Below are positions 3,244 through 23,312 of a DNA stretch of 29,823 bases, in pieces. Where the stretch lies: assembly GCA_946482075.1 (NCBI GenBank), contig CAMLQG010000035.1, positions 1 through 29,823 of the forward strand, in the 5' to 3' direction. The stretch comes from an uncultured Erythrobacteraceae bacterium (GTDB taxonomy: Bacteria > Pseudomonadota > Alphaproteobacteria > Sphingomonadales > Sphingomonadaceae). The position numbers and the translations under genes were made by a program. The number at the start of each line of letters is the position of its first letter. The stretch's first letter is position 1. Below the pieces are notes generated by a model. That model had not been told where the DNA came from and did not search any database. It saw nothing but the letters and a program-made list of their open reading frames with translations.

Positions 3244-3274
3244 TTGCGCTCACCGAGCCGGGAACAGCTGTTCG

Positions 3275-4701: not shown

Positions 4702-5586
4702 TTACAAGCTCAGACGTCTGTTCAATACGGTACTCCGCAAGTCGCGCAGGGCGCCGGGGGTGCGTCCGACAAAATGCCGGATTTCCCGGATCATGTGTGA
4801 TTGGTCGTAATAATAGTCCGCGACGCGAGAGAGCTGCGTGTCCGAAGCGTTGGGATCGGAGAGCACGACAGCGGCCTTGAGTGCTCTGGTCTTTCTCAAG
4901 AGCATCTGCGGCGGAAGCCCGAAATAGCGCTTGGAAAGCCGCTGGATCTGGCGCTCCGAATACCCGATCTCTTGCGGGAGAGTGGCGAGATCCCAACCCT
5001 GTCCTTTGGACAGCCAGTCCCGCATACGGGATACGAACCGCATATGTGCAGGCGGCAAATTGCGCAGTCTGGGCTGAATGAACCCGGCCAGCATTTCAAC
5101 AATGACCTCTGCGGTACACTCTTCCTCCCACCAGGCGATGCTTGCTTCCCGCGCGAGGTCGCCGGTGGCGGCGGATCCCAAATGATCGGCTGCGGGAAAA
5201 ACCCGGTTCCCGTCATCATGGGCATCCAGACCGGTGAGAGCCGCCCAGCCGAGGGGAGTCAGCGCTGCTCCCACGGTCAGAAACCCCCCTTCGACAAAAT
5301 AGCGGGTGGCGCAGGAGCACGGTGCGAGCAAGCCGATCGCGGGAAGAGGATCACGATGGCCCGCTGGAAAGGCGAAGAAGCCATCGCCTTGCAGAACGAT
5401 CAGAAGATGGCTTGCATAAGAGGGATGCATATCGACCACGTATCGCTCATCGCAGCGGAACTCGTGGAAGGTCGCGACAAAAGGGCGCAGTGGTTCCGGG
5501 GCCGGAATATTGCGTTGGAGGAACGCCGCAGGGTCGGTGAGCGGCAAGCGCGAGAGGGCATCATCGCTGAAAGTGAAGAGTGACAT
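4702..5586 (-). CDS. AraC-family transcriptional regulator
   Basis: A 294-residue regulator. The C-terminal AraC double helix-turn-helix spans about 198-282 (WDLATLPQEIGYSERQIQR, then the second HTH SRVADYYYDQSHMIREIRHF and GRTPGALR). The N-terminal part (about 20-120, HPSYASHLLIVLQGDGFFAFPAG) looks like the beta-rich ligand-sensing domain common in this family. The start is set by GGGAGG seven bases before the ATG at 5586. It is convergent with the MFS gene (50 bp between the stops). It may control the receptor/carrier operon or the flavin-enzyme operon; the effector cannot be told from sequence. Confidence 0.9.
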   Translation of the reverse strand: MSLFTFSDDALSRLPLTDPAAFLQRNIPAPEPLRPFVATFHEFRCDERYVVDMHPSYASHLLIVLQGDGFFAFPAGHRDPLPAIGLLAPCSCATRYFVEGGFLTVGAALTPLGWAALTGLDAHDDGNRVFPAADHLGSAATGDLAREASIAWWEEECTAEVIVEMLAGFIQPRLRNLPPAHMRFVSRMRDWLSKGQGWDLATLPQEIGYSERQIQRLSKRYFGLPPQMLLRKTRALKAAVVLSDPNASDTQLSRVADYYYDQSHMIREIRHFVGRTPGALRDLRSTVLNRRLSL

Positions 5587-5964: not shown

Positions 5965-6945
5965 CTATCTCGCTTGTATCGACTTCGCACGAGCTAATTT
6001 TGGCGGAATGCCAAATTGTGAGTGATAAGATTTGCTGAAATGGGAGGCGCTTTTGAAGCCCACCATATAGGCGATATCAATGACATTGAAATGTGCGAAG
6101 GATACGTCCGTCAGCCATTCATGCGCCTGGTTGAGCCGAATTTTCCGGAGAGTATGGCTGAACGTCAGATTGTGGTTCTTCAGAGTATAATGAATGTATC
6201 GCCGGGACATATTGCAGCCATTTGCGACATGCTCGACCAAAAGGCCCTGGACGGACATGTTCTCCCGTATGAATGCGAGGATCTTTTCGCACTGGGCGTG
6301 CTGTGCGCCTCTTTTCAGATCATCCGCGGCATGCTGCCTGATGTAGCTGAACAGCGTTTCGAGAAGGGTGAGGGTCAAGTTGTTGGCCACCTGCGCGCTC
6401 AAGGCGGACGCTTCCTGCGCGAGGTTGAGAAAAGTATCCCGGACCACGCGCGCGGTGCCCTGGTCGGCCGGGAAGGGTTTCGCACACAGGCGGTCGATTT
6501 CCGGCAGGAATGTGCGCATCATGTGTTTGGGAACAATGATGTGAAGCTGGCTGCAGTTTTCGCCGGCCAGGCCATTGAGCGCCTTGATATGGAAGGGCCG
6601 GTCGCCGTAGGTGATGACCATCTCCTGCACCGAGACGGGCGTGCCGTTGGCTTCATCCTGCGTGACACGCAGGCTGCCCTGGAGAGGAAACCAGATCACG
6701 TAAAGATTGCTCGGGCCGTTGCGGATATGCCGCCAGGTTCGCCGCACGCCGAGAGGGCAGCCCGTAAAGCGGGCGACGGGAACCGCGCCGGAGCTGGCGG
6801 TGGATAGATGGAATGAGCGATTTTTCGGACTCAGGTCAAGCGCATAGGATTCCGCTTCGTAATAATCCCGAGCAAAAATCTCTCCAAATTCCTGCTCTGA
6901 GGATGCCGATTCCGATATTCCCATGTTGAATGTTGCTCTTTTCAT
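5965..6945 (-). CDS. AraC-family regulator with AraC-binding-like N-terminal domain
   Basis: A 326-residue regulator. The N-terminal sensing domain (about 40-200) contains YVIWFPLQGSLRVTQ and MVITYGDRPFHI, the pattern of the AraC-binding-like domain seen with aromatic- or steroid-type effectors. The C-terminal double HTH (about 222-322) contains CNMSRRYIHYTLK and VIDIAYMVGFKSASHFSKSY, then FGIPPKLAR. No good ribosome-binding site precedes ATG 6945; the second methionine (6924) is an alternative start. The gene is divergent from the TonB receptor at 7329. A direct repeat with 21-bp spacing lies just upstream of its start, which suggests autoregulation and possibly control of the receptor. Base composition here is lower in GC than the flanking genes. 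Confidence 0.9.
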   Translation of the reverse strand: MKRATFNMGISESASSEQEFGEIFARDYYEAESYALDLSPKNRSFHLSTASSGAVPVARFTGCPLGVRRTWRHIRNGPSNLYVIWFPLQGSLRVTQDEANGTPVSVQEMVITYGDRPFHIKALNGLAGENCSQLHIIVPKHMMRTFLPEIDRLCAKPFPADQGTARVVRDTFLNLAQEASALSAQVANNLTLTLLETLFSYIRQHAADDLKRGAQHAQCEKILAFIRENMSVQGLLVEHVANGCNMSRRYIHYTLKNHNLTFSHTLRKIRLNQAHEWLTDVSFAHFNVIDIAYMVGFKSASHFSKSYHSQFGIPPKLARAKSIQAR

Positions 6946-7328: not shown

Positions 7329-9794
7329 ATGGCACGGATAAATTCCATCAAGGGTCTTCGCAGAAGTGTCGGTTCTACGGCGCTGGTGGCTGCAATCGCC
7401 GCCGTTTCCCCGGCTCTTGCCCAAGGCGTTAGATCCAGCTCCGCGGATGGCGGGACAGGCGCGGACGAAATCGTCGTCACGGCGCGTTCGCAAGGCGAGA
7501 CGCTTCTGGAGGTTCCTGTCGCCGTCACCGCGATGGGCGAAGCGCAGCTCGCCAAGTTCGCGGCCAGCGATCTTTCCAAGATTGCGCAGATGGCGCCGGA
7601 ACTCGAAATCTATCCCGGCGGCGCAGGTGCGGGCGGCGCGTTCCTGATCCGCGGCATCGGCACCACTGCGGATACGACCGGTGTCGATCCTTCGGTTTCG
7701 CTTGCCATCGACGGTACTCAGATCGCGCGTCCGCGCACCTCCTATGCCGGCATGTTCGATCTGGAGCAGGTCGCCATCCTCAAGGGGCCGCAGGCCCTGT
7801 TCTTCGGCCGCAACGCGTCGGCCGGCGTAGTTTCCATCCAGACGGCCAATCCGACCGGGGATCTCTCCGGCTATGTTCGAGGCGGCTACGAATTCGAAGC
7901 GCGTGAACGTTATGTCGAAGCGGCGGTGAGTATTCCGATCACGGAGACGCTGGGTGTCCGTGTCGCCGGCCGCTACAGCAAGCTGCGCGGCTGGGTGCGC
8001 AACAACGCACTGCCTTTCGCGGTTGATCCGTTCAATCCGGTGCCCGGCAACACGATCGGCTTGCCGGGCGCGACCTGGCGCTGGGGCCCGGGTTCGGAGA
8101 ACAAGGGCGGCCGCATCACTCTGAAATGGTCTCCGTCGAGCGCTTACACGTCCGTCATGAAAGCGATGTTCCTGGGTTATAGCGATGTCAGCGGCACCTC
8201 CGTCGCCGAACCCATCTGCGATGGCGTGCCGACCAATTTCGGCTTCCCTGACCAGACCAGCGACTGCAAGCTGAACGGTCAGACCTCGCAGACGTCGCTG
8301 CCGCCGGAATATGCGAAATCGCCCTATGGCGATCGCCGTTTCTTCAATGGCGAGCCCTATTCCGAGATGAACTCGATGCTGCTCACCTGGCAGCAGACGC
8401 TCGATCTGGGCAGGGTCACGATCCAGGCGAATACCGGCTACACGAAGCACAAGTTCGGCCTGCGCGGCAATTATTCCGGCATGGAATATGCGGATTGGCA
8501 CGGCGGCATCGATGAAGATTTCAAAGGCTTCTCGCAGGAAGCGCGCTTCATCAGCCAGTTCGACGGGCCCTTCAACTTCACCGTGGGTGCCTATTACGAA
8601 GACACCAGGAACACGAAGACGACCAATCTTTTCCTGTTCAACGCCGGTCCCGATCCGGATACTGGAAGCTATCAGGCCGCCTTTGGCGAGGCCTATGACA
8701 AGGGCAAGGTCTGGTCGGCCTTCGCACAGGCGCGGTTCGACATCTCTCCCCAGGTCGAACTGGCCGGTGGCGTTCGCTACACGAAAACGAAGAAGCGCGT
8801 TCTCCAGGGCCAGTTCAACTACGTCCACCAGCACTATGATCCGAACTTCACGCCTCCGTCCGCGACCGGGGGCTTCCTGCTGCCGGAAGGGGTGGGCCTG
8901 ACCAGCCGGATCAAGGAAGACAACTGGTCGCCCGAAGCGACGATCACCTGGCACCCGACGCCGGACAGCACGCTCTATGCCGCCGCGAAGACGGGCTACA
9001 AGTCGGGCGGCATCGCACAGCCTGCGATCCTGAGCCTGGCCGATACGTCATCCAGCGTCATCTTCAATCCGGAGAAGGCGAAGGGCGGCGAAATCGGCTA
9101 CAAGGCCCAGCTGCTCGATCGTCGCCTGCGGTTCGAAGCAACCGTCTATTTCTATCGCTTCAGCGGATTGCAGCTTACATCCTACGATCCGGTCGCGGTT
9201 TCCTACCGTGTGCAGAACGCGGCCGACGCAGACCAGAAGGGTATCGAGCTTTCCGCTTCCTATCGCGTCATGGACGGGCTCACCCTCAACGGCGCGCTGT
9301 CCTACAACAGCGTGAAGTACAAGAAATTCACCGACGCGTCCTGCTATGCCAACCAGTTGGCGGGACCGAACGCATTCGATCTCCCGGGGGACGGGCTTGA
9401 CGGCCTGTGCGACGTGCAGGATCTCTCCGGTCGCCGGCTCCACCGCGCACCGAAGTGGAATGCGACGTTCGGCGTGTCGTATGAAACGGAAGTCGGCAAT
9501 TCGCTCAAGTTCGGCTTCGACGGCAGCGTTCGCTACAGCAGTTCCTACTTCGCATCGGAACAGCTGGCGCCCAACAGCAAGCAGAACAGCTATGCGCTGC
9601 TGAACGCTGCAGCCCGCATCGGCAGCGAGGACGACACCTGGGAACTGGCCTTGATCGGGCGCAACCTGACCAACAAGCGGATCATCGGTTTCGTTCAGGA
9701 CAAGTCGGGCGCATTCGTTCCCGGCAAGAACGAGATCTACGCTTATGGGTCGCGTCCGCGCGAAGTGGCAGTGCAGGCGACCTTCCGCTTCTGA
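7329..9794 (+). CDS. TonB-dependent receptor (no STN domain)
   Basis: An 821-residue outer-membrane transporter. The start is fixed by GGGGAGGT at 7313-7320, eight bases before ATG 7329. A signal peptide covers 1-31 (ends SPALA), a TonB box DEIVVTARS lies at 46-54, and the plug follows at about 60-175 with FLIRGIG and LKGPQALFFGRNASAGVVSIQT. The barrel ends with aromatic-terminal REVAVQATFRF. The plug is clearly related to the receptor at 571-3243 (both have KGPQALFFG(K/R)N and AGVV(D/S)IQTA), but it lacks the STN signalling domain. Regulation therefore probably passes through the divergent AraC gene rather than FecI/FecR. It is convergent with the SDR gene. The substrate is likely the same class as for the first receptor. 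Confidence 0.95.
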   Translation: MARINSIKGLRRSVGSTALVAAIAAVSPALAQGVRSSSADGGTGADEIVVTARSQGETLLEVPVAVTAMGEAQLAKFAASDLSKIAQMAPELEIYPGGAGAGGAFLIRGIGTTADTTGVDPSVSLAIDGTQIARPRTSYAGMFDLEQVAILKGPQALFFGRNASAGVVSIQTANPTGDLSGYVRGGYEFEARERYVEAAVSIPITETLGVRVAGRYSKLRGWVRNNALPFAVDPFNPVPGNTIGLPGATWRWGPGSENKGGRITLKWSPSSAYTSVMKAMFLGYSDVSGTSVAEPICDGVPTNFGFPDQTSDCKLNGQTSQTSLPPEYAKSPYGDRRFFNGEPYSEMNSMLLTWQQTLDLGRVTIQANTGYTKHKFGLRGNYSGMEYADWHGGIDEDFKGFSQEARFISQFDGPFNFTVGAYYEDTRNTKTTNLFLFNAGPDPDTGSYQAAFGEAYDKGKVWSAFAQARFDISPQVELAGGVRYTKTKKRVLQGQFNYVHQHYDPNFTPPSATGGFLLPEGVGLTSRIKEDNWSPEATITWHPTPDSTLYAAAKTGYKSGGIAQPAILSLADTSSSVIFNPEKAKGGEIGYKAQLLDRRLRFEATVYFYRFSGLQLTSYDPVAVSYRVQNAADADQKGIELSASYRVMDGLTLNGALSYNSVKYKKFTDASCYANQLAGPNAFDLPGDGLDGLCDVQDLSGRRLHRAPKWNATFGVSYETEVGNSLKFGFDGSVRYSSSYFASEQLAPNSKQNSYALLNAAARIGSEDDTWELALIGRNLTNKRIIGFVQDKSGAFVPGKNEIYAYGSRPREVAVQATFRF

Positions 9795-9858: not shown

Positions 9859-10638
9859 TCAGTTTTCCTCGATGATCTGTTGCGCATTGGTCCCGATGCC
9901 GGCGCCCCATGCGCCATCCACCGAAAGCTCCGCTCCGCTCACATAGGATGCATCATCGCTGGCAAGGAACAGGCTGGCGTGGGCGATCTCGGACGGAAGC
10001 CCGACACGGCCGCAGGGCACTCCGAAACCGACTGCCATCGTTTTCGTGCTGATGCTGTCATCGGGGATTAGCATGGGCGTTTCGATGATGCCGGGATGGA
10101 TGCTGTTGCAGCGGATCCCATGCGCGGCGACTTCGAGCGAGACGGTCTTGGTCATGCCGCGGATCGCCCATTTGCTGGCGTCATAGGCGATCATTCCGAT
10201 CGTTCCGCGCATCCCGTTGAGCGACGAGATATTGACGATCGAGCCTCTCCCGGCCTCTTTCATGACGGGGATCACCGACCGCATTCCCAGAAAAGTACCG
10301 GTCACGTTGACGTTCAGCACGCGGGCAAATTCGGTTTCGTTCGTTTCCAGCATCGGCTTGTAGAGCGCGATCGCTGCATTGTTGACCAGGATGTCGATCG
10401 TGCCCCATCGCTCGACCACCGATCGCACGGCGGCTTTCCAGGCGCTTTCCACCGAGATGTCGAGTTCGAACGGGATCGCCGAAGAGCCAATGCCCGATGC
10501 GACGGCGCGGACTTCGTCGCCCAGGCAATCCGCGACCAGTACGCGTGCGCCTTCGGCCGCGAACAGGCGCGCTGTCGCTTCCCCGATGCCCCTGGCGCTG
10601 CCGGTCACGATGGCGACCTTGCCATTCAAACGTCCCAT
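9859..10638 (-). CDS. Short-chain dehydrogenase/reductase (classical SDR)
   Basis: A 259-residue NAD(P)-dependent oxidoreductase of normal classical-SDR length. The Rossmann glycine motif TGSARGIG is at 12-19, NNAA at 86-89, Asn111 in the NVTG segment, catalytic Ser138/139 (VNISSLNG), and Tyr152-x3-Lys156 (YDASK). Asp37 after the second beta strand (LVADC) favours NAD(H) over NADP(H). GGAG lies six bases before the ATG. It is divergent from the EthD/flavin-enzyme operon, which suggests that it oxidises a secondary alcohol or reduces a ketone in the same pathway. It belongs to the broad group that includes hydroxysteroid and cyclohexanol dehydrogenases; the exact substrate cannot be assigned. 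Confidence 0.92.
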   Translation of the reverse strand: MGRLNGKVAIVTGSARGIGEATARLFAAEGARVLVADCLGDEVRAVASGIGSSAIPFELDISVESAWKAAVRSVVERWGTIDILVNNAAIALYKPMLETNETEFARVLNVNVTGTFLGMRSVIPVMKEAGRGSIVNISSLNGMRGTIGMIAYDASKWAIRGMTKTVSLEVAAHGIRCNSIHPGIIETPMLIPDDSISTKTMAVGFGVPCGRVGLPSEIAHASLFLASDDASYVSGAELSVDGAWGAGIGTNAQQIIEEN

Positions 10639-10817
10639 GCTCTTCTCCGCGGATGTTATGGTGCCGGCTGGAGTTGATCCGGCGGCCGCAAGCTTGGCAA
10701 TGCCTTGCGCTCAGGGACTGCGCGCACCCGTAAATGCCGGTGCGCTATATCGACGGTATGCCGTGATGCCGGGGTTAGGATCGGGATCGCCATGATAATG
10801 GCATATCGGAGAAGGCC
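10639..10817. promoter_or_regulatory. Divergent control region of SDR and EthD operon
   Basis: A 179-bp region between two divergent starts. GCCAT (10789-10793) and ATGGC (10798-10802) form a short palindrome about 16 bp before the EthD start. No strong sigma-70 boxes were recognised by eye, and no gene is visible. Confidence 0.35.
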
Positions 10818-11651
10818 ATGATCAAGCATATCGCTCTGGTGAGTTCCAAGCCGGGCATGGGGCGGCAGGCGTTTATCGACCGGTACGAGCAAGGGCATGC
10901 CCCCTTGGCGCTGCGGATACTGCCGCCGGGCACGTTCTGCGACTACCGCCGGAACTATCTCATCCCGGATGGCGCTGTTGAAGTGCCGCATCTCCGATCG
11001 AATGTTTCCGGCCCGGACTTCATCGATATTTCCGAGTTCTGGTATCCCAACCAGCGACAGGTCGATCTTTTCGTTCGGACTCTCGCGGAGACCGATGTCG
11101 GCGAGCAGATCACGCGCGACGAGGCCGATTTCATGATCCGTGAGAAGATCACGATGATCAATGTCGACGAGCGCGCCAGCCCCCGCGGTGAGCTTGCTCC
11201 CCGCCCCGCAGGCGGGCCAGAGCGGCCTGCGGTCAAGGCCATCATACTCGGTAGCAAGCTGCCCGGAATCTCGCGCGAGAGGTTTATCCAGCGGTACGAG
11301 GAAGGGCACGCGCCGCTGGCTTTGAAACTCCTGCGAAGGAATGGAGCGCCGCTCATCGCGGACTACAAGCGTTCCTATCCCATTCCGGGGCCGCTGTTCG
11401 ATCTGCCGCATGTGGAGTTCGAGCCGCCCAGCCCGGACTTCGATGTCATGACCGCGCTATGGTTCTGGACGGCGGAGGATTACGAGCGCTTCCTCGAACT
11501 GGTCTCGCAACCCGCGATCGGTGAACAGTTGGCAAAGGACGAGGAAGCGCTTTTCGATCGGCCGCGTTTCCGGATGTTCCTGGTGGAAGAGCATGTCACG
11601 CCAGCCGAGGTTCTGGCCGTGGCCGGAGGCGATTGTCCTCTCGTCGAATAG
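10818..11651 (+). CDS. Tandem EthD-domain protein (two dimeric alpha/beta-barrel repeats)
   Basis: A 277-residue protein made of two similar halves, about 1-118 and 138-262. Each has a start like (K)xIxLxSKxPG, then RxxFIxRYExGHAPLAL (His27 and His164), a DYxRxYxIP segment, a central D-F-(I/D) stretch, and GEQxxxDE. This is the EthD-like ferredoxin-fold domain, normally about 100 residues and acting as a dimer, so the fused pair may form an intramolecular barrel. EthD domains accompany degradation of ethers and other organics; the biochemical role is poorly defined. GGAG six bases upstream supports ATG 10818. It is the first gene of a four-gene forward operon with flavin enzymes and has a paralogue at its end. 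Confidence 0.8.
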   Translation: MIKHIALVSSKPGMGRQAFIDRYEQGHAPLALRILPPGTFCDYRRNYLIPDGAVEVPHLRSNVSGPDFIDISEFWYPNQRQVDLFVRTLAETDVGEQITRDEADFMIREKITMINVDERASPRGELAPRPAGGPERPAVKAIILGSKLPGISRERFIQRYEEGHAPLALKLLRRNGAPLIADYKRSYPIPGPLFDLPHVEFEPPSPDFDVMTALWFWTAEDYERFLELVSQPAIGEQLAKDEEALFDRPRFRMFLVEEHVTPAEVLAVAGGDCPLVE

Positions 11652-11683
11652 CTTCAAATCGAATTCACCAGGGGAGATTGAGA

Positions 11684-13669
11684 ATGGCGCTCGCCAAGAT
11701 TTTCGAGCCGATCGATATCGGCCCGGTCCGCGTGAAGAACCGTATTTTCCGCAGTGCCCATGGCACCTGGTTCGGCGACGGGGCGCCGACCGACACGCTG
11801 ATCAACTATCACCTGGAGCGCGCCAGGAATGAAGTGGGGCTTTCCTTTCTGGAAGTCTTCTCCATCCATCCGACGACCAATTCTCGACTCCGCCTTTGGG
11901 ATCCGAGATTGGAGGACGGCTATCACAAGCTGATCAAGGCGATCGAGCCGCACGGGATGACCCTGTTCCAGCAGCTCTGGCATGGCGGCCACAACTTCCT
12001 GCCGATCCCCATGGACGGCTTGCCGCAATATGCCGACATCGTCCCCTGGGGGGCATCGGATATTCCCAGCGTTCTGAATGGGATGCCACCCATTCCGATG
12101 ACGAAATGGATGATCGACGAGATCGTGGAGGCCTATGCGAAATCCGCGAAATTCTGCAAGGATGTCGGCCTGCAGGGCGTCGAAGTGCATGCATCGCATG
12201 GCTATCTGCCGCAGCAATTCCTCTCGCCGAACGCCAACAAGCGCGAGGATGAATATGGCGGCAGCTTCGACAATCGCATGCGTTTCCTGCTGGAAGTCAT
12301 GCGAGCCGTCAAAGCTGCTGTCGGCGAGGATTTCGCCGTGGGCGTCCGCCTCTCGCCCGACCTTGTCGAAAATGGCGTGAACGTGCTGGAAAACCAGCAG
12401 GTGATCGACCGCCTGCAGCAGGAAAACCTGGTGCACTTCATCAATCTCTCGCAGGGCAGCTATTACACCATGCCGCGGATCTGGGCCGGGATGCACGAGC
12501 CGGCGGGATACGAGCTGGAGACCAGCGTGCCGATCGCGCAGAGCTCCAAGGTGGTGAACATGGCTATCGGCCGGTTTCGCACGCTCGAAGAGGCGGAACA
12601 GGTCCTGAAGGATACGCCGATCCACATGGTCGGCTTCACCCGTGCGATGATCGCCGATCCGCAGCTCGTCACGAAGACTCTCGCCGGACAGACCGAGCGC
12701 GTCCGACCGTGCATCGGCTGCAATCAGGGCTGCGTCGCCGGCGTGTTTCTCCAGGGGAGCATGAGCTGTGCCGTCAATCCTGCGGTGGGGAGGGAAGGGA
12801 CGCTATCCGAAGATCTGCTCGACAAGGCAGCGAAGAAGAAGAAAGTCCTCGTCGTCGGTGCCGGCCCTGCCGGTCTCGAGGCGTCGAGACTGGCGGCGTT
12901 GCGCGGCCATCAGGTCGTCTTGTTCGAAGCGGCGCGCGATGTCGGCGGGGCGATGAACCTGGCGGCCAAATGCCCCAGCCGACAGGGTATCCGGGACATC
13001 ATCTATTGGCAGGAAGCCGAAGTCTATGAACTCGGCGTCGATGTCCGCATGAATACCTATGTCGAGGCAGCGGATATCCTGGCCGAGAGGCCCGACGTGG
13101 TGATCATCGCGACCGGTTCCTACCCGCGGCAAGACGGTGTCGTCTTCTCTCACCCCGGCTCCCGGATCGAGAACTTCGCCGCTTCCCCGGTCTTGACGAG
13201 CGAAGAGGCACTGGGGGTCACTGGACCGCTCGATGGTCAGACCGCGATCGTCGTCGACGATCTGGGGCACTGGGAAGCGATCGGCGTGGCGGAGCATTTC
13301 ACCACTCTGGGCGCGGACGTCCATTTCGTGACTCGCCACTATCAGTTCGCCCATCTCACGGTTTGGAACAACGAAACCGAAGAAGCGATGATGCGGATGA
13401 ACCGGGCGGGGCGCTTCCATCTCCACGTCATGAGCCGCGTCACTGCGCTTGTCGACGGCCATGCGCGGATCGAGCCCATCTACGGCGGTTCCTCCATCGA
13501 CGTGCCCAACGATCTTTTCGCGTTCGTCTCGGTCAATCACGCAAACCGGTCGCTCGTCGAGGAATTGCGCGGGAAGGTGGCTGAAGTCGAAGTGATCGGC
13601 GACGCCAAGGCGCCGCGCTTCCTCGAGATGGCTATTCGTGAGGGGCACATGGTCGGCCGCGGGATTTAA
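11684..13669 (+). CDS. Old-yellow-enzyme/TMADH-like FMN, 4Fe-4S and FAD oxidoreductase
   Basis: A 661-residue enzyme of the 2,4-dienoyl-CoA reductase/trimethylamine dehydrogenase family. ATG 11684 is preferred to the in-frame ATG 11633 because GGGGAG lies at 11671-11676 and the protein then begins with the usual LFEPI-type strand. The N-terminal TIM barrel (1-340) has the active-site stretch GVEVHASHGYLPQQFLSP (His169, His172, Tyr174) and EYGGSFDNR. The cluster ligand set Cys343-x2-Cys346-x3-Cys350-x11-Cys362 is complete. A C-terminal FAD/NAD(P) part begins at VLVVGAGPAG (388-397). Relatives reduce conjugated C=C bonds of enones or enoyl-CoAs, or demethylate amines, with electrons passing from NAD(P)H through FAD and 4Fe-4S to FMN. 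It lies 32 bp after the first EthD gene. The neighbouring SDR fits an enone-reduction role. Confidence 0.92.
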   Translation: MALAKIFEPIDIGPVRVKNRIFRSAHGTWFGDGAPTDTLINYHLERARNEVGLSFLEVFSIHPTTNSRLRLWDPRLEDGYHKLIKAIEPHGMTLFQQLWHGGHNFLPIPMDGLPQYADIVPWGASDIPSVLNGMPPIPMTKWMIDEIVEAYAKSAKFCKDVGLQGVEVHASHGYLPQQFLSPNANKREDEYGGSFDNRMRFLLEVMRAVKAAVGEDFAVGVRLSPDLVENGVNVLENQQVIDRLQQENLVHFINLSQGSYYTMPRIWAGMHEPAGYELETSVPIAQSSKVVNMAIGRFRTLEEAEQVLKDTPIHMVGFTRAMIADPQLVTKTLAGQTERVRPCIGCNQGCVAGVFLQGSMSCAVNPAVGREGTLSEDLLDKAAKKKKVLVVGAGPAGLEASRLAALRGHQVVLFEAARDVGGAMNLAAKCPSRQGIRDIIYWQEAEVYELGVDVRMNTYVEAADILAERPDVVIIATGSYPRQDGVVFSHPGSRIENFAASPVLTSEEALGVTGPLDGQTAIVVDDLGHWEAIGVAEHFTTLGADVHFVTRHYQFAHLTVWNNETEEAMMRMNRAGRFHLHVMSRVTALVDGHARIEPIYGGSSIDVPNDLFAFVSVNHANRSLVEELRGKVAEVEVIGDAKAPRFLEMAIREGHMVGRGI

Positions 13670-13678
13670 CAGGGATTT

Positions 13679-13705
13679 CGCCTGCGCCGAGCTGGCGGCG
13701 AGGCG
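13679..13705 (+). other. Intercistronic hairpin
   Basis: CGCCT-G-CGCC (13679-13688) pairs with GGCG-gcg-AGGCG (13694-13705) around a GAGCT loop in the 62-bp gap between the OYE-like and LLM genes. It could protect or process the operon transcript. No T-run follows, so full termination is unlikely. Confidence 0.3.
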
Positions 13706-13731
13706 GGATTTCCAAGGATTGGGAGTTGAAC

Positions 13732-14637
13732 ATGAAGCCGTTTCAAGTGGGCGTGGTCTTTCCGCAATTCGAAATCGAAGAAGATCCCATCGCCATCCGC
13801 GATTTCGTGCAGGCGGTCGAAGGCCTCGGTTTCGACCATCTCGTCGCCTATGATCATGTGCTGGGCGCCAGCCGCGCGACCCGGCCGGACTGGTATGGGC
13901 CATACGATTCCGACGATGCCTTCTTCGAGCCCTTCACGCTGTTCAGCTTTCTGGCGGGCGTGACCGAGCGGATCGAACTGGTTTCCGGGATATTCATCCT
14001 GCCGCAGCGGCAGACCGTGTTGTTCGCGAAGCAAGCCGCCTCGGCCGACGTGCTTTGCGGCGGACGCCTGCGGCTCGGTGTATCGATCGGGTGGAATCCG
14101 GTGGAATATGAAGCGCTGGGTGTCGATTTCCGTACCCGCGCCAAGCTCATGGAAGATCAGATCGCGGTGCTCCGTCGGTTGTGGACGGAGCCGACCCTGA
14201 CGCTGGACACCGAATATCACAAGATCACCGATGCGGGGCTCAAGCCGCTGCCGGTCCAGCGCCCCATCCCCCTCTGGATCGGCGGGGCGGCCGAAGCGGC
14301 TCTCGATCGTGCCGCACGGATCGGTGATGGCTGGTTCGGCTATGGCGATGCCGCCAACGCCGAGCGGACCATCGAATTCATTGGCTCGCGAGCCGAGGCG
14401 GCCGGCCGCAGGCGGGAGGATGTCGGTGTCGAGAACATCATCTTCATCGGTTCGCGGCCGGGTGTCGGCACGATCGAAAGCCAGGAACGCACGCCCGAGC
14501 ATGCTGCCGAGGATGTCGCGATCTGGCGCGATGCGGGTGCGCGGGCCGTGTCGTTCGAGACGCTGTTCCTCGGGTGTAGGACGGCAAGCGAACATATCGT
14601 GGTTCTAAAGCGTGTCGCTGCAGCGCTCGGCATGTGA
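13732..14637 (+). CDS. LLM-class flavin-dependent oxidoreductase
   Basis: A 301-residue luciferase-like monooxygenase-superfamily enzyme. The start is ATG 13732, with GGGAG at 13721-13725; the TTG six bases earlier overlaps this site and is unlikely. The fold markers are the N-terminal strand FQVGVVFPQ, the GFDHLVAYDHVL loop, the TERIELVSGIFILPQR strand, and the LGVSIGWNPVEYEALGVDF signature at about 115-133, then GRRREDVG. This last pattern matches the TIGR03619-type group, annotated as F420-dependent in actinobacteria. In a sphingomonad, FMN or F420 must both be considered. Members perform oxygenation or hydride transfer on carbonyl or cyclic compounds. It is the third gene of the EthD operon; it lies 26 bp before the last gene. 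Confidence 0.9.
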   Translation: MKPFQVGVVFPQFEIEEDPIAIRDFVQAVEGLGFDHLVAYDHVLGASRATRPDWYGPYDSDDAFFEPFTLFSFLAGVTERIELVSGIFILPQRQTVLFAKQAASADVLCGGRLRLGVSIGWNPVEYEALGVDFRTRAKLMEDQIAVLRRLWTEPTLTLDTEYHKITDAGLKPLPVQRPIPLWIGGAAEAALDRAARIGDGWFGYGDAANAERTIEFIGSRAEAAGRRREDVGVENIIFIGSRPGVGTIESQERTPEHAAEDVAIWRDAGARAVSFETLFLGCRTASEHIVVLKRVAAALGM

Positions 14638-14663
14638 CCGGGCGCGGATATGGGAGATAAGCT

Positions 14664-15506
14664 ATGATCAAGACCGTGGGTTTGTTCACCAAGCGGCCCG
14701 GCATGGATCGGGAAGCGTTCATAGATCGCTATGAAAGCCCCGAATACGGCCATGCGCAATTCGCGATCCGGTTGTGCCCGTGGCAGGACGACTACCGCAG
14801 GAACTTCATCCGCGACACGTCGCCGATCACCTATGCGCACCTCGAAACCAGCACTTCCCGACCTCCCTTCGATGTCGTGATGATAACGAAGGCGCGCGAC
14901 GCCGCGCAGGCGGAGCTTACCGCGAAGGCACTGGCCGACCCCATCGTCGGGGGAAAGATCGCCAGGGACGAGGAAGCGTTGTTCGATCGTTCGCGCATGA
15001 CGATCTTCGGCGTGGAAGAGCGGGAAACGCCCGCGGAACTGTTGGCGGCGCGGCCGGCCGGCCATGTGGGCGCACCCGCGCTCAAGATGCTGGGCTTCGC
15101 CCGCCGGCGCGATCCGGGCATACCCCTGAAGGATTTCATCCAGGATTATGAAAGCACTCTGGCTCCGCTCGTGACGAAGCTGATGCAGCGCGGCGGGGCG
15201 CCCATCTTCGCAGGCTATGTCCGAAACTACGTGCAGCAGGACGTGCTGGTCAATCAGGGGCATATCACCATTGCGCCGCCCAAGCCCGACTTCGATGTCA
15301 TGAACGAGATCTGGTTCTGGACCGAACGCGATTTCGAGAGCTTCCAGGATATTTGCTCCGTTCCGGATGTGGGAGCGCAGATGGCTGCCGAGCAGACGCG
15401 GCTATTGGACCCTGCGTCGATCAACATGGTCTTCGTCGACGAGTATTTTCATACTCGCGAGATGCTCGACGCTGCGCTGAAAGAGCATGATCTCGCAGCC
15501 AATTGA
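14664..15506 (+). CDS. Second tandem EthD-domain protein
   Basis: A 280-residue paralogue of the protein at 10818-11651, again with two halves (about 1-120 and 138-265). The first half keeps MIKTVGLFTKRPGM, FIDRYE and GHA (His30), and DYRRNF. The second half reads DFIQDYESTLAPLVTKL, so the GH of the GHAPLA motif is lost there. The DFDVMNEIWFWTERDFESF segment closely matches the FDVMTALWFWTAEDYERF segment of the first protein, confirming common origin. GGGAG lies seven bases before the ATG. It is the last gene of the operon and converges with the OsmC gene. A heteromer of the two proteins is an attractive but untested idea. Confidence 0.78.
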   Translation: MIKTVGLFTKRPGMDREAFIDRYESPEYGHAQFAIRLCPWQDDYRRNFIRDTSPITYAHLETSTSRPPFDVVMITKARDAAQAELTAKALADPIVGGKIARDEEALFDRSRMTIFGVEERETPAELLAARPAGHVGAPALKMLGFARRRDPGIPLKDFIQDYESTLAPLVTKLMQRGGAPIFAGYVRNYVQQDVLVNQGHITIAPPKPDFDVMNEIWFWTERDFESFQDICSVPDVGAQMAAEQTRLLDPASINMVFVDEYFHTREMLDAALKEHDLAAN

Positions 15507-15531: not shown

Positions 15532-15594
15532 GCCGGGCTCCGTCAGCGCAATTTTGCGGTAAAACGATATGGTGTCGCTGCGCTTCCGCCCGGC
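15532..15594. terminator. Compound inverted repeat between convergent operons
   Basis: GCCGGGC (15532-15538) pairs with GCCCGGC (15588-15594), and inside it AGCGCA (15545-15550) pairs with TGCGCT (15579-15584). The structure fills the 87-bp gap between the EthD operon and the OsmC stop and could act as a bidirectional transcription barrier. The loop is long and there is no T-run. Confidence 0.35.
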
Positions 15595-16016
15595 TATCGT
15601 TCGAATTCCGTCGTGATCTTGATAACGCCCGTCAAGGTCCTGTGAATAGGGCATTTTTCCGCGACTTCGAAGAGCTTCCGGCGATGCTCCTCCGGCAAAG
15701 CGGGCGCGACGATCGAGATTGTCTTGTAGAATTCGTCGATCATCTGCTCCGAGCCTGCCTCCATCTTCTTGCCATGGCGAACCTGAACCTGGACGTGTTC
15801 GAGCGGCCAGCCTTCACGCATCGCATACCAGCGGATTGTCATGGCAGTGCATTCGCCCAGAGCCGCCGTGAGAAGGTCATACGGGTTCGGACCGAGATTC
15901 TTTCCCCCTTTGGCTTCAGGTTCATCCCCGAAGACATGATGGCCGGACACCTCGATGGCGACGGCGAGAGGGCTGCCTTGGGCATCGGAAACGTTCGCTA
16001 TGGTCTTTTGCGCCAT
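15594..16016 (-). CDS. OsmC-family peroxidase-like protein
   Basis: A 140-residue OsmC/Ohr-superfamily protein, the usual length. Two redox cysteines sit where expected: Cys56 in LTAALGECTAMTIRWYA and Cys122 in EKCPIHRTL. Family knowledge: these thiols reduce organic hydroperoxides in the cytoplasm. I start it at ATG 16016 rather than the longer frame (to 16100) because the extra residues overlap the upstream reductase gene; with this start only four bases separate the reductase stop from the ATG. It is the last gene of the pirin operon, which points to oxidative or electrophile defence. Confidence 0.92.
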   Translation of the reverse strand: MAQKTIANVSDAQGSPLAVAIEVSGHHVFGDEPEAKGGKNLGPNPYDLLTAALGECTAMTIRWYAMREGWPLEHVQVQVRHGKKMEAGSEQMIDEFYKTISIVAPALPEEHRRKLFEVAEKCPIHRTLTGVIKITTEFER

Positions 16017-16020
16017 CGGT

Positions 16021-16581
16021 TCAGCTATCCCTTTGTCCAATAAAGGCGGCGTAGCCGGCAAGAAACGCCTGGAGTTGGTCGCGGATCGCGGGCTCGCCAA
16101 TCATGCCATTCTCGTCGAATACTCCGGATGCACGAGAGACCAGCATCCGGCCGCCGGTCCACAGGCTCGCCCCTAGCGTCCGCAACACGGGCAACCAGTC
16201 GTTCTGTGCCAGCAGCGTGCCGAACCCGCCCGGCGATGCGCCCAGGATTGCGAACGGACGTCCGCCGAACACGCGCGCGATGTCGTTTGGCGGGCGGGAG
16301 GTCCAATCGATCGCGTTCTTGAACACGCCGGGAATGCCGTTGTTGTATTCAGGCGTCGCCAGGATCACCCCGTCGGCCGCCGCAATCGCCGTTTTCAGAT
16401 CGACGACCGCATCGGGCAGACCGTTCGCCGCTTCATCGTCCGCATTGTAGAGCGGGATGCCATGCAAGGTGGCGATGTCGAGCGATACGCCCTGGGGCAG
16501 CGATTGAGCCGCGTTGCGAAGCAGGGCGGTATTGAAGGATTCCGCCCGCAAGCTGCCCGAAATGCCAAGCAGGCGCATCAT
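16021..16581 (-). CDS. NADPH-dependent FMN reductase family protein
   Basis: A 186-residue flavodoxin-like reductase. The FMN phosphate-binding loop GISGSLRAESFN is near the start and the second signature ATPEYNNGIPGVFKNAIDW is mid-protein, followed by GGRPFAILGASPGGFGT. Relatives (ChrR, YieF, azoreductase-like) make two-electron reductions of quinones, azo dyes or metals. I start at ATG 16581, where ATGA overlaps the upstream GNAT stop; an ATG follows immediately at 16578. No strong ribosome-binding site is seen, so translational coupling is likely. It sits in an operon with pirin, an isochorismatase-like hydrolase and OsmC. Confidence 0.92.
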   Translation of the reverse strand: MMRLLGISGSLRAESFNTALLRNAAQSLPQGVSLDIATLHGIPLYNADDEAANGLPDAVVDLKTAIAAADGVILATPEYNNGIPGVFKNAIDWTSRPPNDIARVFGGRPFAILGASPGGFGTLLAQNDWLPVLRTLGASLWTGGRMLVSRASGVFDENGMIGEPAIRDQLQAFLAGYAAFIGQRDS

Positions 16582-16928
16582 GTCTGGGAGCTCGTGGGAA
16601 GCCGCGGTTTCTCTCCTGGCCCGACGGTCATCACATCCCGCCACTCGGGATGTTTCTCGTATCGCGCGCGGACATAAGGACAGATGGGGATGATCTTGAA
16701 CCCGCGCTCCCGAGCATCGGCGACGAGGAAATCCACTAGTGCTGCGGCAACGCCGGTGCCTTTCAGTGCTTCGGGGGCACCCGTATGATCAGCACTGATC
16801 AATTCTGGCCCGCGATGGGTGAAGGTGATCTCCGCCTCGGCATCGATCCCCGCGACTTTGCCGACATAGCGGCCATGCCGATCGCCATCCTCCATGGTGA
16901 TGGTGATTTCAGGCTTCGGTTCGATCAA
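16578..16928 (-). CDS. GNAT-family N-acetyltransferase (YjdJ type), TTG start
   Basis: A 116-residue small GNAT. It has the strand EITFTHRGPELISADHTGAP, an acetyl-CoA-loop-like LKGTGVAAALVDFLVADARERG, and a C-terminal IIPICPYVRARYEKHPEW. This order is typical of the YjdJ-like single-domain group. The best start is TTG 16928: GAGAGG lies four bases upstream, immediately after the stop of the isochorismatase-like gene, and the frame beyond that is overlap. ATG 16895 is the alternative. The stop overlaps the next gene as ATGA. The substrate is unknown. Confidence 0.8.
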   Translation of the reverse strand: MIEPKPEITITMEDGDRHGRYVGKVAGIDAEAEITFTHRGPELISADHTGAPEALKGTGVAAALVDFLVADARERGFKIIPICPYVRARYEKHPEWRDVMTVGPGEKPRLPTSSQT

Positions 16929-16938
16929 CTTTCCTCTC

Positions 16939-17571
16939 CTACTTCTCGAAATCCTTTTCGGGATTGGAACCGTCGGCGTTCTGGAAGACATGCATGAAGC
17001 CGGGAACGGTCGCCTCGCGCGACCAGTCGCGCTGGAGTTCGCAGTAGAGCTGCGTCTTGCTGATGAGCTTGCCGCCCGCCTGCTCGATGCGCCGCAGCGC
17101 CGCTTCGTGAGCAGCGACCGAAGTCCCTCCAACCGCGTCCGCGACGACGTAGACATCGAAACCTTCGGCCAGCGCGTCGAGCGCGGGAAAGGCGAGACAG
17201 GCTTCTGTCCATAGTGCGGTCATGATGAGCTTGCGCCTGCCGGTGGCATAGACGGCGCTGCGAAATTCGACGTCTTCCCAACTGTTGATCGTGGTGCGGT
17301 CATAGGTCGGCAGATGACCGAGCACTTCCTGGACTTCCGGGATCGGAGGCCGGTTGCGGCCGCTCTGGACGTTCACCGTCGAATGGATGATCGGCAGGTT
17401 GTAGTTGACTGCAGCCTTGCAGGTGCTGGTGATGTTGAACACCAGTTCCTGCTTGTCGATGGAGCGGATCGAAGAGACCTGGATCGGCTGATAGTCGATG
17501 ATGATGAACGCCGAATTTTCCGGGGTCAGCAGGTGATCGGAAATCGGATCGCGCCGGGGTTCACTGGTCAT
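16939..17571 (-). CDS. Isochorismatase-family hydrolase (YcaC-like)
   Basis: A 210-residue cysteine hydrolase. The catalytic Asp26 lies in AFIIIDYQP and the nucleophile Cys125 in TALWTEACLAFPALDALAEGF, the pattern of YcaC-like members; GFDVYVVADAVGG follows. The start is ATG 17571 with GAGGAG seven bases upstream; the longer frame to 17655 runs into the pirin gene. Members hydrolyse amides or imides; YcaC itself has no settled substrate. It is the second gene of the operon, 80 bp after pirin, and a hairpin lies in that gap. Confidence 0.92.
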   Translation of the reverse strand: MTSEPRRDPISDHLLTPENSAFIIIDYQPIQVSSIRSIDKQELVFNITSTCKAAVNYNLPIIHSTVNVQSGRNRPPIPEVQEVLGHLPTYDRTTINSWEDVEFRSAVYATGRRKLIMTALWTEACLAFPALDALAEGFDVYVVADAVGGTSVAAHEAALRRIEQAGGKLISKTQLYCELQRDWSREATVPGFMHVFQNADGSNPEKDFEK

Positions 17572-17613
17572 TGAAACGTCTCCTCTGGCATGTGCCCCAC
17601 ATGTGAAAGGAGA

Positions 17614-17638
17614 GACCGGCGAGGGGCTTCCGCCGGTC
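17614..17638 (-). other. Intra-operon hairpin between pirin and hydrolase genes
   Basis: GACCGGCG (17614-17621) and CGCCGGTC (17631-17638) form a perfect 8-bp GC-rich stem with a 9-base loop. It has no T-run and lies in a co-directional operon, so partial termination or RNA processing that changes the ratio of the two products is more likely than a full stop. Confidence 0.4.
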
Positions 17639-17651
17639 CCTCCTGCGGGGG

Positions 17652-18524
17652 TCACGCATTTATCATCTGGCCGAAGCGTCCGCTGCCGAAGTCGGTGATG
17701 GCCTGACGAATTTCCGCCTCGGTATTCATCACGAACGGGCCATAGCCGACGATCGGTTCGTCGATCGGCTCGCCGGTCAGGACGAGGGCGATAGTGTCGC
17801 CATCGGCACGCAGGCGGACTTCGCTACCGTCACGACTGAGCATCAGCATTTCCGCTTCTCCGATTTCCTGGTTGTCCTCGACGGTCAGATGTCCGCCGAG
17901 AACCACCAGCATCGCGGTATGTCCTTCGGGCAGTGACAGTGTGATGTCGGCGTCGCGGACCAGCCGCAGATCCCATACATTGATCGGCGTGAAGGTTTTC
18001 GCGGGACCCTTGGCATCGCCCAGGCGACCGGCAATCACACGCGCCACCCCGGCACCGTCCGGAAGTTCGACCACCGGGATCTCGGCATTGGTGATGGCCT
18101 GATAGCCGCCAGGCGCCATCTTGTCCTTTGCGGGCAGGTTGACCCACAATTGCACCATCTTGAACGGGCCGCCGGTCTTCGCGAATGCCGGCGAATGATA
18201 TTCTTCGTGGAGGATGCCGCCGGCAGCAGTCATCCACTGGACATCACCCGGGCCAATGACCCCGCCATTGCCGGTGGAATCCCTGTGCTCGACCTCGCCA
18301 TCATAGACGATGGTGACGGTTTCGAACCCGCGATGGGGATGCTGGCCCACGCCGCGTCTCTCGGCCGTCGGCGTGAAATAATGCGGCCCGGCATAGTCGA
18401 GCAGCAGGAAAGGGCTGATATGCTCGCCCAGCGAATTGTAGGACAATAGCGAGCGGACGGGGAAGCCATCGCCCACCCAATGGCCCCGCTCGTTGCCATA
18501 GCGGCCGAGAATTGTCTTGCTCAT
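17652..18524 (-). CDS. Pirin family protein
   Basis: A 290-residue bicupin, the usual length. The metal-binding residues of pirins are visible: His62 and His64 in GQHPHRGFETVT, and His106 and Glu108 in GGILHEEYHS. A second cupin half follows (about 170-285). Bacterial pirins such as YhhW act as quercetinases, and others modulate redox metabolism. The start is ATG 18524 with GGAGGAG seven bases upstream. It is the first gene of the minus-strand operon and is divergent from the LysR regulator, a common arrangement in which the LysR protein controls the pirin operon. Confidence 0.93.
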   Translation of the reverse strand: MSKTILGRYGNERGHWVGDGFPVRSLLSYNSLGEHISPFLLLDYAGPHYFTPTAERRGVGQHPHRGFETVTIVYDGEVEHRDSTGNGGVIGPGDVQWMTAAGGILHEEYHSPAFAKTGGPFKMVQLWVNLPAKDKMAPGGYQAITNAEIPVVELPDGAGVARVIAGRLGDAKGPAKTFTPINVWDLRLVRDADITLSLPEGHTAMLVVLGGHLTVEDNQEIGEAEMLMLSRDGSEVRLRADGDTIALVLTGEPIDEPIVGYGPFVMNTEAEIRQAITDFGSGRFGQMINA

Positions 18525-18642
18525 TGCCTGTCTCCTCCGGCGCGACTCCGGACGGGTCGCTCCTGACTTCCAGGGAACATGCTCCCGCACCGCTGGGTTC
18601 GAAAGATTGTGATCTCGGACGCAGCGTCCTATCCAGGGAACG
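18525..18642. promoter_or_regulatory. Divergent promoter region, pirin operon and lysR
   Basis: A 118-bp gap between divergent starts, the usual place for LysR operators. GAT-TGTG-ATC at about 18606-18615 is a small dyad that could be part of a LysR box. The promoters themselves were not recognised. Confidence 0.35.
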
Positions 18643-19572
18643 ATGAAAGACCTCAACGACCTCTATTATTTCGTCCAGATCGTCGATCATGGCGGCTTCG
18701 CGCCGGCCGCTCGTGCGACAGGACTTCAGAAGTCGAAGCTCAGCAGGCGGATTGTGGCGCTGGAGGAGCGGCTCGGTGTTCGCCTGCTGAACCGCTCTTC
18801 GCGCCGCTTCTCCGTTACCGAGGTTGGTCAGGAATTCTATCGCCATTGCGCCGCGATGCTGGTCGAGGCGGAAGCTGCCGAGCAAGCAATCGCCGAGCTT
18901 CGGGCGGAACCGCGCGGAGTGATCCGCATGGCTTGCCCGGTTGGCCTCCTGCAATTCCAGTTCAGTGGGCTCATCGCCCGCTTCGTGAAGGCAAATCCGT
19001 CCGTCGAGGTGCACCTCAAGAGCTTGAATCGGCCGGTTGACGTGATCGCCGAGGGTTTCGATCTGGCGATCCGTGTCCGCTTTCCGCCGCTCGATGATAC
19101 GGGCCTCGTGATGCGGAAGCTCGACGAGAGCCAGCAATGCCTGGTGGCAAGCCCAGGACTGATCTCCGGTCTCGTGAAGTCGCCTTTGGAATTGCACGGC
19201 TTCCCCAGCCTCGACCTCGGTCCGGCGCGGGCCGACTATCGCTGGGAACTCGAAAACGCCGATGGTCAAAAGGCGAGCGTTCCACACGCACCACGTATCG
19301 TGACCGACGATATGGCGACGTTGTTCGCGGCCGCGGTCGAAGGGCTGGGGATCGTCCAACTCCCGACCTTGCTGATCTGGCCGGCCATCCAGGATGGGCG
19401 CCTGGTTCATGTGCTTCCGGATTGGCGACCGCCAGCCGGGATCGTGCACGCGGTGTTTCCGTCGCGGCGAGGGCTGCTGCCTTCGGTTCGGACCCTTCTC
19501 GATTTCTTTGCCCACGAATGCGCAATCCAACGGAACAAGGCGGAGAAAGTCCTTCAATCCGCGCACATCTGA
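18643..19572 (+). CDS. LysR-family transcriptional regulator
   Basis: A 309-residue regulator. The N-terminal winged HTH spans about 3-62 (LNDLYYFVQIVDHGGFAPAA, then LQKSKLSRRIVALEERLGV and LLNRSSRRFSVTEVG). The C-terminal effector domain starts at about 92 (GVIRMACPVGLLQF) and includes DLAIRV and VEGLGIVQLP. AGGGAA sits just before ATG 18643. It is divergent from the pirin operon and most likely senses a quinone or electrophile and activates that operon and itself; the effector is inference. A short stem GTCGG-AAAC-CCGAC at 19619-19632 lies 47 bp after the stop and may end the transcript. Confidence 0.93.
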   Translation: MKDLNDLYYFVQIVDHGGFAPAARATGLQKSKLSRRIVALEERLGVRLLNRSSRRFSVTEVGQEFYRHCAAMLVEAEAAEQAIAELRAEPRGVIRMACPVGLLQFQFSGLIARFVKANPSVEVHLKSLNRPVDVIAEGFDLAIRVRFPPLDDTGLVMRKLDESQQCLVASPGLISGLVKSPLELHGFPSLDLGPARADYRWELENADGQKASVPHAPRIVTDDMATLFAAAVEGLGIVQLPTLLIWPAIQDGRLVHVLPDWRPPAGIVHAVFPSRRGLLPSVRTLLDFFAHECAIQRNKAEKVLQSAHI

Positions 19573-22831: not shown

Positions 22832-22921
22832 CTCGGTTTCCTTTTCGGCCGACGCTTGTAGGCCGTTGGTGCTGTCCGCTGCATGGAACCGGGAGGCGCC
22901 GCGAAGCGCCTCCCGGCCAAG

Positions 22922-23275: not shown

Positions 23276-23312
23276 TGGTAGGCTCCGGAAATCTGATCGA
23301 AGATGTATTTGT

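What the first reader, a model, noticed from the sequence alone, without database searches (positions are those of the whole stretch)
9859..15506. Candidate undescribed catabolic system: two duplicated EthD proteins bracketing two flavin enzymes, with a divergent SDR
Seen: a forward operon EthD2x - OYE/TMADH-like reductase - LLM oxidoreductase - EthD2x, with gaps of 32, 62 and 26 bp, and a divergent SDR sharing the control region. Known: OYE-like enzymes reduce conjugated double bonds, LLM enzymes oxygenate or transfer hydride, and SDRs interconvert alcohols and ketones. Inference: a pathway for a cyclic enone, terpenoid or steroid-like compound in which the EthD pair forms a hetero-barrel that binds or rearranges an intermediate. 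I know of no named pathway with this gene order.
Basis: partly seen in the sequence, partly recalled or inferred. Interest (0 to 1): 0.7.

Follow-up and report, generated by a model that had tools for sequence, protein, structure and literature searches.

The report
Tandem-EthD flavoenzyme operon, probable ring-ketone catabolism
A bacterium, apparently a relative of sphingomonads, carries a compact group of enzyme genes that probably reshapes a ring-shaped alcohol or ketone (steroid- or terpenoid-like), built around two double-domain EthD proteins whose own chemistry is untested as far as could be found.

Summary
Corrections: each EthD protein is a two-domain chain predicted to form its own barrel, so a hetero-barrel is not needed; the two are old paralogues (39% identity), not a recent duplication. 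Relatives are rare (5 of 397 sphingomonad-family genomes at E<=1e-45). No other copy of the full set was found in the loci opened; a 4,050-bp metagenome contig apparently holds an EthD1-like plus EthD2-like pair, while in one related MAG the OYE, EthD2 and LLM relatives are scattered. Tandem EthDs sit beside ketosteroid-dehydrogenase-like flavoproteins in 3 of 7 loci. The SDR's best relative lies 2–4 kb from a homologue of Hsh3 (an EthD-domain 7β-hydroxysteroid dehydratase) in 4 of 21 records, but farther away in 13. Best reading: an upper catabolic module; SDR makes a ring ketone, OYE desaturates or reduces beside it, EthDs dehydrate or shift double bonds without cofactor, LLM adds oxygen. 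Reactions and substrate are inferred. The EthDs are not Hsh3 orthologues; the OYE fails the BaiCD and mycofactocin cut-offs. New variant of a known kind; moderate interest.

The parts
9859..10638 (-). SDR, hydroxysteroid-dehydrogenase-like (GxxxGIG, NNA, YxxxK)
   Evidence: Pfam; motifs; best PDB matches Rv2002 and 3alpha,20beta-hydroxysteroid dehydrogenase; best plasmid relative 52.6%, annotated 3-alpha-hydroxysteroid dehydrogenase
10639..10817 (.). 179-bp divergent control region; imperfect 14-bp inverted repeat 10754-10767/10795-10808; similar cggagaag motif before both start codons
   Evidence: weak, function not tested
10818..11651 (+). EthD1: tandem EthD protein, YE..H in both halves (Y23/H27, Y160/H164)
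11684..13669 (+). OYE, long form: HxxHGY at 169, CxxCx3Cx11C cluster motif at 343, GAGPAG at 392
13732..14637 (+). LLM flavoenzyme of NCBIfam TIGR03619 (250.3 bits, cut-off 166.9)
14664..15506 (+). EthD2: tandem EthD protein, YE..H kept in the N-terminal half only
7329..9794 (+). TonB-dependent receptor (possible uptake of the substrate; that it belongs is inferred)
   Evidence: best plasmid relatives 42% identical
5965..6945 (-). AraC-type regulator (possible regulator; that it belongs is inferred)
   Evidence: a 49% relative lies about 9 kb from a tandem EthD in L005

Best explanation
It is an upper-pathway catabolic module for a hydrophobic ring alcohol/ketone, most likely steroid- or terpenoid-like. 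Proposed order: uptake by the upstream TonB-dependent receptor; the SDR oxidises a ring alcohol to a ketone; the long-form OYE removes or adds hydrogen across the bond conjugated with that ketone; the two tandem EthD proteins, without cofactor, use the conserved Tyr/Glu/His/Arg residues of their barrels to eliminate water or move the double bond in the hydroxy-enone, each at its own position or face; the LLM inserts oxygen for the next cleavage. Shown here: the genes, families, motifs, predicted folds, and that tandem EthDs recur beside ring-ketone-type enzymes. Inferred: every reaction, their order, the substrate and the role of the receptor.
For: Genes and motifs. Both EthDs are predicted single-chain tandem barrels, mean pLDDT 92.3 and 91.1. 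Hsh3 of Sphingobium Chol11, an EthD-domain protein, was purified and is a 7beta-hydroxysteroid dehydratase acting on Delta4-3-keto substrates (PMC12175502, passages). A long-form OYE of the same strain, 5beta-Delta4-KSTD1, desaturates 3-keto-5beta-bile salts (PMC8044976, passages). Tandem EthDs have a PF00890 flavoprotein within 3 kb in 3 of 7 genome loci; the one in G221 matches ketosteroid Delta4-5alpha-dehydrogenase 4at0 best. Three EthD1 plasmid relatives that I scanned (L001, L002, L035) are EthD-SnoaL_4 fusions; in two Sphingobium records (L002, L035) they lie with SDRs, an OYE-family alkene reductase, an LLM and ring A/B-type degradation genes (calls 5x annotations: 16, 67; domains of L035). 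The window SDR's best relative lies 2.2-4.3 kb from the Hsh3 homologue in 4 of the 21 records with one. A 68%-identical OYE in an Erythrobacteraceae MAG (G001) faces an SDR and two LLM-fold proteins.
Against: The EthDs are only 16-18% identical to the Hsh3 homologue, within the range of shuffled sequence, and Hsh3 homologues form a far branch. The SDR-Hsh3 closeness fails in 13 of the 21 records (best SDR place 18 kb to 702 kb away) and 4 more were not in the SDR listing. Homologues of 5beta-Delta4-KSTD1 with the same architecture (Nov2c085, Nov2c314, C211_11427) showed no activity with bile salts (PMC8044976), so the architecture does not prove the reaction. No ring-cleavage, CoA-ligase or thiolase domain was found in the 26 genes called in this window. 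The set is not conserved: in G001 the OYE, EthD2 and LLM relatives lie on three contigs, and 0 of 20 five-kb OYE loci carried an EthD or LLM match while 8 carried an SDR match. The LLM-EthD association is not significant. Two single-domain EthD1 hits on plasmids (L003, L004) lie next to transposase or regulator and plasmid genes, L004 with catabolic-type genes about 3 kb off.
Confidence: 0.4

Rival explanations
1. Terpenoid-ketone route: the LLM is a type II Baeyer-Villiger monooxygenase (as in camphor breakdown, recalled), the OYE reduces an enone, the SDR handles the alcohol, and the EthDs isomerise or hydrate the resulting lactone or enol.
Against: No flavin reductase inside the gene group; the nearest FMN_red (16021-16581) is on the other strand. 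That TIGR03619 is not a BVMO-defining family is recalled. The context leads found are steroid-like.
Confidence: 0.2
2. Flavonoid/phenolic route: the tandem EthDs act like bacterial chalcone isomerase and the OYE like a plant-phenolic ene-reductase.
Against: Sulfur oxygenase reductase and other unrelated functions match better, so the fold says little; the flavoproteins beside tandem EthDs look ketosteroid-dehydrogenase-like.
Confidence: 0.12
3. The genes are neighbours without a shared pathway: generic oxidoreductases and EthDs collected in a catabolic island.
For: Relatives in G001 lie on different contigs; 0 of 20 five-kb OYE loci had an EthD or LLM match; LLM-EthD link P 0.34.
Against: Short gaps on one strand; an EthD1-like and an EthD2-like protein apparently share one 4,050-bp contig; OYE with SDR and LLM recurs in G001.
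Confidence: 0.15
4. Accessory role: the EthDs are helpers of an oxygenase, as considered for the original EthD of ethyl tert-butyl ether breakdown, here of the LLM.
For: EthD was named for that system, where it works with a P450 and its own role is undetermined (PMC10890192 and PMC3202775, passages).
Against: No P450 domain in the 26 genes called in the window; EthD-domain proteins with a shown reaction are enzymes themselves (Hsh3; MdpH and ClaH decarboxylases as reported in PMC10890192).
Confidence: 0.06

Closest known systems
Hsh3, 7beta-hydroxysteroid dehydratase of Sphingobium sp. Chol11 (PMC12175502, passages)
   Same: EthD-domain barrel protein of similar length (two halves inferred from the paper's AlphaFold3 description); sphingomonad; hydroxysteroid-dehydrogenase SDRs nearby.
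   Different: 16-18% identity to the N. aromaticivorans homologue, not above shuffles; far branch. EthD1 has YE..H in both halves; the four Hsh3 homologues aligned lack it, with WHSHH at that place in the C-terminal half.
5beta-Delta4-KSTD1 / BaiCD, long-form OYE ketosteroid dehydrogenases (PMC8044976, passages)
   Same: FMN barrel + 4Fe-4S + nucleotide-domain architecture.
   Different: BaiCD model 350.7 bits, below its cut-off 825; the window OYE fits TIGR03997 better (502.8, below cut-off 793), whereas the S. herbicidovorans long-form OYE fits BaiCD better; the two are 31% identical over 506 aligned positions.
EthD-SnoaL_4 fusion loci of Sphingobium/Novosphingobium plasmids (L001, L002, L035)
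   Same: EthD domain 38-41% identical to either half of EthD1 in L002 and L035; L002 and L035 also hold SDRs, an LLM (L002: TIGR03619 at 162.2 bits, just below cut-off) and OYE-family enzymes.
   Different: The second domain is NTF2-like, not EthD; L002 and L035 lie with ring A/B-type degradation genes, which the window lacks.
Rhodococcus gordoniae pDND3A locus (L030)
   Same: TIGR03619 LLM gene overlapping a Hsh3-like gene, followed by SDR, NTF2 and a PF00890 flavoprotein.
   Different: The EthD-type protein groups with Hsh3 homologues (34%, long branch); no long-form OYE annotated in the 24.7-kb stretch.

Membership tests
Hsh3-type 7beta-hydroxysteroid dehydratase | Sequence homology to Hsh3 | tested here: not met
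   Against the N. aromaticivorans homologue: EthD1 43 and EthD2 42, shuffle maxima 50 and 63; far branch. A profile comparison gave a weak match (probability 46%, E 2e-4). Hsh3 itself was not at hand, only homologues.
Hsh3-type 7beta-hydroxysteroid dehydratase | EthD domain / dimeric alpha-beta barrel protein | tested here: met
   Pfam EthD and AlphaFold2 models
Hsh3-type 7beta-hydroxysteroid dehydratase | Dehydration of 7beta-hydroxy Delta4-3-ketosteroids | not testable with these tools
   needs an assay
BaiCD / 5beta-Delta4-KSTD | Long OYE with 4Fe-4S motif and nucleotide domain | tested here: met
BaiCD / 5beta-Delta4-KSTD | Score above the NCBIfam BaiCD cut-off | tested here: not met
   350.7 against 825 bits
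BaiCD / 5beta-Delta4-KSTD | Desaturation of 3-ketosteroids | not testable with these tools
   needs an assay; some homologues of this type were inactive in the paper
Mycofactocin-system OYE 2 (TIGR03997) | Score above curated cut-off | tested here: not met
   502.8 against 793.15 bits
TIGR03619 LLM class | Score above curated cut-off | tested here: met
   250.3 against 166.9 bits
TIGR03619 LLM class | Use of F420 as cofactor | not testable with these tools
   no whole genome held for the window
9,10-seco steroid degradation cluster | hsaA/C/D/E/F/G-type ring A/B genes close by | tested here: not met
   no such domain in the 26 genes called in this 29.8-kb window; says nothing beyond the window

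The most novel reading that the evidence does not exclude
EthD1 and EthD2 found a new family of cofactor-free, single-chain tandem-barrel dehydratases/isomerases, distinct from Hsh3, that act as a complementary pair (two positions or two faces of one ring system) together with a long OYE, giving an aerobic bacterium a dehydrate-then-reduce dehydroxylation module that works like the gut Bai pathway but with EthD barrels in place of its dehydratases.
Probability: 0.13. Interest if true: 0.62.

Novelty: new variant of a known kind. Interest (0 to 1): 0.42.

Why it matters
In the held library the only paper with both 'EthD' and 'steroid degradation' is the one on Hsh3. If the tandem EthDs here are enzymes of ring-ketone breakdown, the catalytic scope of the EthD fold widens, labels such as 'EthD family reductase' or 'nuclear transport factor 2 family protein' on their relatives are misleading, and a five-gene set becomes a testable biocatalytic module for hydroxy-enones.

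Tried and rejected
Hetero-barrel of EthD1 and EthD2: set aside as unnecessary, because each chain has both halves; it is not excluded. Hsh3 orthology: tested and not met. Recent tandem duplication: rejected (39% identity; EthD2 in a clade of 8 at 100/100, EthD1 with P0002 at 100/98 and with P0003 and P0008 at 91/98; the deeper forks of that tree are partly unresolved and the tool warns of long branches).

Neighbourhood search: the genome-contig scan gave only 3 loci. 397 family genomes were searched with the EthD alignment (5 with a match at E<=1e-45; six candidates scored per genome), the OYE (19 at E<=1e-130) and the LLM (1 at E<=1e-85). I opened seven tandem-EthD loci in five genomes; for G231 only a 5.8-kb contig exists. 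Of the 19 OYE-bearing genomes I opened wide surroundings only in G001; the rest were seen as loci of about 5 kb (20 loci: 8 with an SDR match, 0 with EthD or LLM). Of the 19 plasmid records matching EthD1 I opened six. Gene calls in unannotated loci come from a home-made codon score.

LLM-EthD co-localisation: dropped as support, P 0.34. The PF00890 figure (3 of 7, P 7e-4) uses a uniform null, was chosen after seeing the loci, and catabolic genes cluster anyway, so it is indicative only. SDR-Hsh3 closeness: 4 of 21 records near (2.2-4.3 kb), 13 far (18-702 kb), 4 not among the 30 of 377 SDR records listed. Fold matches to sulfur oxygenase reductase, DyP peroxidases and others were taken as fold only. 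The receptor's nearest plasmid relative in S. paeninsulae lies among acyl-CoA and NTF2 genes and gave no substrate lead. The 4,050-bp pair rests on two proteins of one source, each listed with one contig of that length; the contig was not seen, and the LLM list (best 120 of 7,995) shows no protein from a contig of that length. Promoter scan: nothing.
Full report
What is there. The window holds an SDR on the minus strand (9859-10638) and, diverging from it across 179 bp, four plus-strand genes: EthD1 (10818-11651), a long Old Yellow Enzyme (11684-13669), a luciferase-like flavoenzyme (13732-14637) and EthD2 (14664-15506). A TonB-dependent receptor (7329-9794) and two AraC-type regulators (4702-5586 and 5965-6945, minus) lie upstream. 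Downstream an OsmC/FMN-reductase group runs on the opposite strand.

How rare. A word-based search of 5.8 billion proteins gave 15 relatives of EthD1 and 8 of EthD2, the window's own proteins included. Of 397 genomes of the Sphingomonadaceae-type family, 5 have a tandem EthD at E<=1e-45. P0003 (54% to EthD1) and P0012 (66% to EthD2) are each listed with one contig of 4,050 bp, which suggests that the pair exists together in one other organism; the contig could not be read.

The flavoenzymes and the SDR. The OYE has HxxHGY at 169, a four-cysteine cluster motif at 343 and GAGPAG at 392 and aligns with NCR, histamine dehydrogenase and, for most of its length, 2,4-dienoyl-CoA reductase. It scores 502.8 bits with the mycofactocin OYE 2 model and 350.7 with BaiCD, both below cut-off. 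The LLM passes the TIGR03619 cut-off. The SDR's best structures are Rv2002 and 3alpha,20beta-hydroxysteroid dehydrogenase.

Context elsewhere. Three of seven tandem-EthD loci in genomes (G002, G221, G019) have a PF00890 flavoprotein within 3 kb; the naive chance of 3 or more is 7e-4. The G221 flavoprotein matches 3-ketosteroid Delta4-5alpha-dehydrogenase best. The three G001 loci and the short G231 contig lack one. A TIGR03619 LLM lies within 5 kb in one of seven (P 0.34), which is not evidence. Of the six EthD1-matching plasmid records that I opened (of 19), three hold EthD-SnoaL_4 fusions (N. aromaticivorans L001, S. herbicidovorans L002, Sphingobium TomTYG65 L035). L002 and L035 also hold SDRs, an LLM, an OYE-family alkene reductase and ring A/B-type degradation genes. 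The other three are single-domain EthDs: the one of S. paeninsulae lies beside an OYE, a PF00890 protein and a TonB receptor; that of S. baderi among transposase and plasmid genes; that of Rhodococcus USK13 beside regulators, with catabolic-type genes about 3 kb off on one side and plasmid genes on the other.

SDR and Hsh3. Twenty-one plasmid records hold an Hsh3 homologue. The window SDR's best relative lies 2.2-4.3 kb from it in four (N. aromaticivorans, Novosphingobium ES2-1 and THN1, Burkholderia arboris), 18-702 kb away in thirteen, and four records are not among the 30 of 377 SDR records listed. This links the SDR type to steroid loci only loosely.

Conservation of the set. G001, an Erythrobacteraceae MAG, holds an OYE of 68% identity (contig C31), a 69% EthD2 (C42) and an LLM of 51-52% (C15). 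The C31 OYE faces an SDR and two LLM-fold proteins. The C42 EthD2 lies near an LLM, a GST and a single EthD. Across 20 five-kb OYE loci from 19 genomes, 8 show an SDR match and none an EthD or LLM match. The parts keep similar company but not this order.

Mechanism. Hsh3, an EthD-domain protein of Sphingobium Chol11, was purified and shown to remove the 7beta-hydroxyl from Delta4-3-keto bile salts (PMC12175502, passages). A long OYE of the same strain desaturates 3-keto-5beta-bile salts, though three homologues of it showed no activity in the same assays (PMC8044976, passages). By analogy: SDR makes the ketone, OYE desaturates or reduces, EthDs dehydrate or isomerise, LLM oxygenates. The analogy is of fold and chemistry, not shown descent: the window EthDs are not detectably homologous to the Hsh3 homologue by pairwise comparison and only weakly by profile, and the Hsh3 homologues with the R. 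gordoniae protein form a far branch.

Literature. Searches for EthD with catabolic, steroid, LLM, OYE and SDR terms listed no paper on this gene set in the held open-access library; apart from Hsh3 they listed a chloroacetanilide P450 paper and eight others, mostly fungal. The word EthD does not occur in the main texts of PMC8044976, PMC10653915 and PMC12882949. PMC8399759 was seen in passages, PMC10890192 and PMC3202775 likewise. Subscription papers are not covered.

Verdict. A real, compact arrangement of known families around two uncharacterised tandem EthD proteins, not found described. The substrate class (ring ketone, steroid- or terpenoid-like) is a reasoned lead and no reaction has been shown. 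New variant of a known kind, interest 0.42.

Noticed in passing
window 5-4651: FecR C-terminal part, a TonB-dependent receptor with a long N-terminal extension before its plug domain, and an MFS transporter in a row: looks like a surface-signalling-regulated uptake unit.
   Followed up: partly
window 20145-26649: Copper island: CopB, CopA-type multicopper oxidase, copper-type P1B ATPase and a MerR regulator; best matches on Sphingomonas/Sphingobium plasmids at 74.5% and 80.7% DNA identity over part of it.
   Followed up: partly
window 15594-19572: OsmC, FMN reductase, GNAT, isochorismatase and pirin genes on the minus strand with a LysR regulator on the plus strand beside them.
   Followed up: no
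L001:12001-12825, L002:12001-12813, L035:12001-12813: EthD domain fused to a SnoaL_4 (NTF2-like) domain, annotated as NTF2 family, EthD family reductase or hypothetical protein; a natural fusion of two folds each known in hydroxysteroid dehydratases (folds).
   Followed up: partly
L002:13475-14259: An SDR about 50% identical to the window SDR appears split over two frames in S. herbicidovorans, while intact in TomTYG65.
   Followed up: no
L030:11105-12744: A Rhodococcus gordoniae LLM gene overlaps an Hsh3-like gene (34% to the N. aromaticivorans homologue) that Pfam does not recognise at 1e-5.
   Followed up: partly
G001 (MAG CANJYE): A 3.0-Mb Erythrobacteraceae MAG with 29 TIGR03619, 20 PF00890 and 10 PF00724 matches and 21 matches to the EthD alignment at the thresholds used: rich in this enzyme set.
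   Followed up: no
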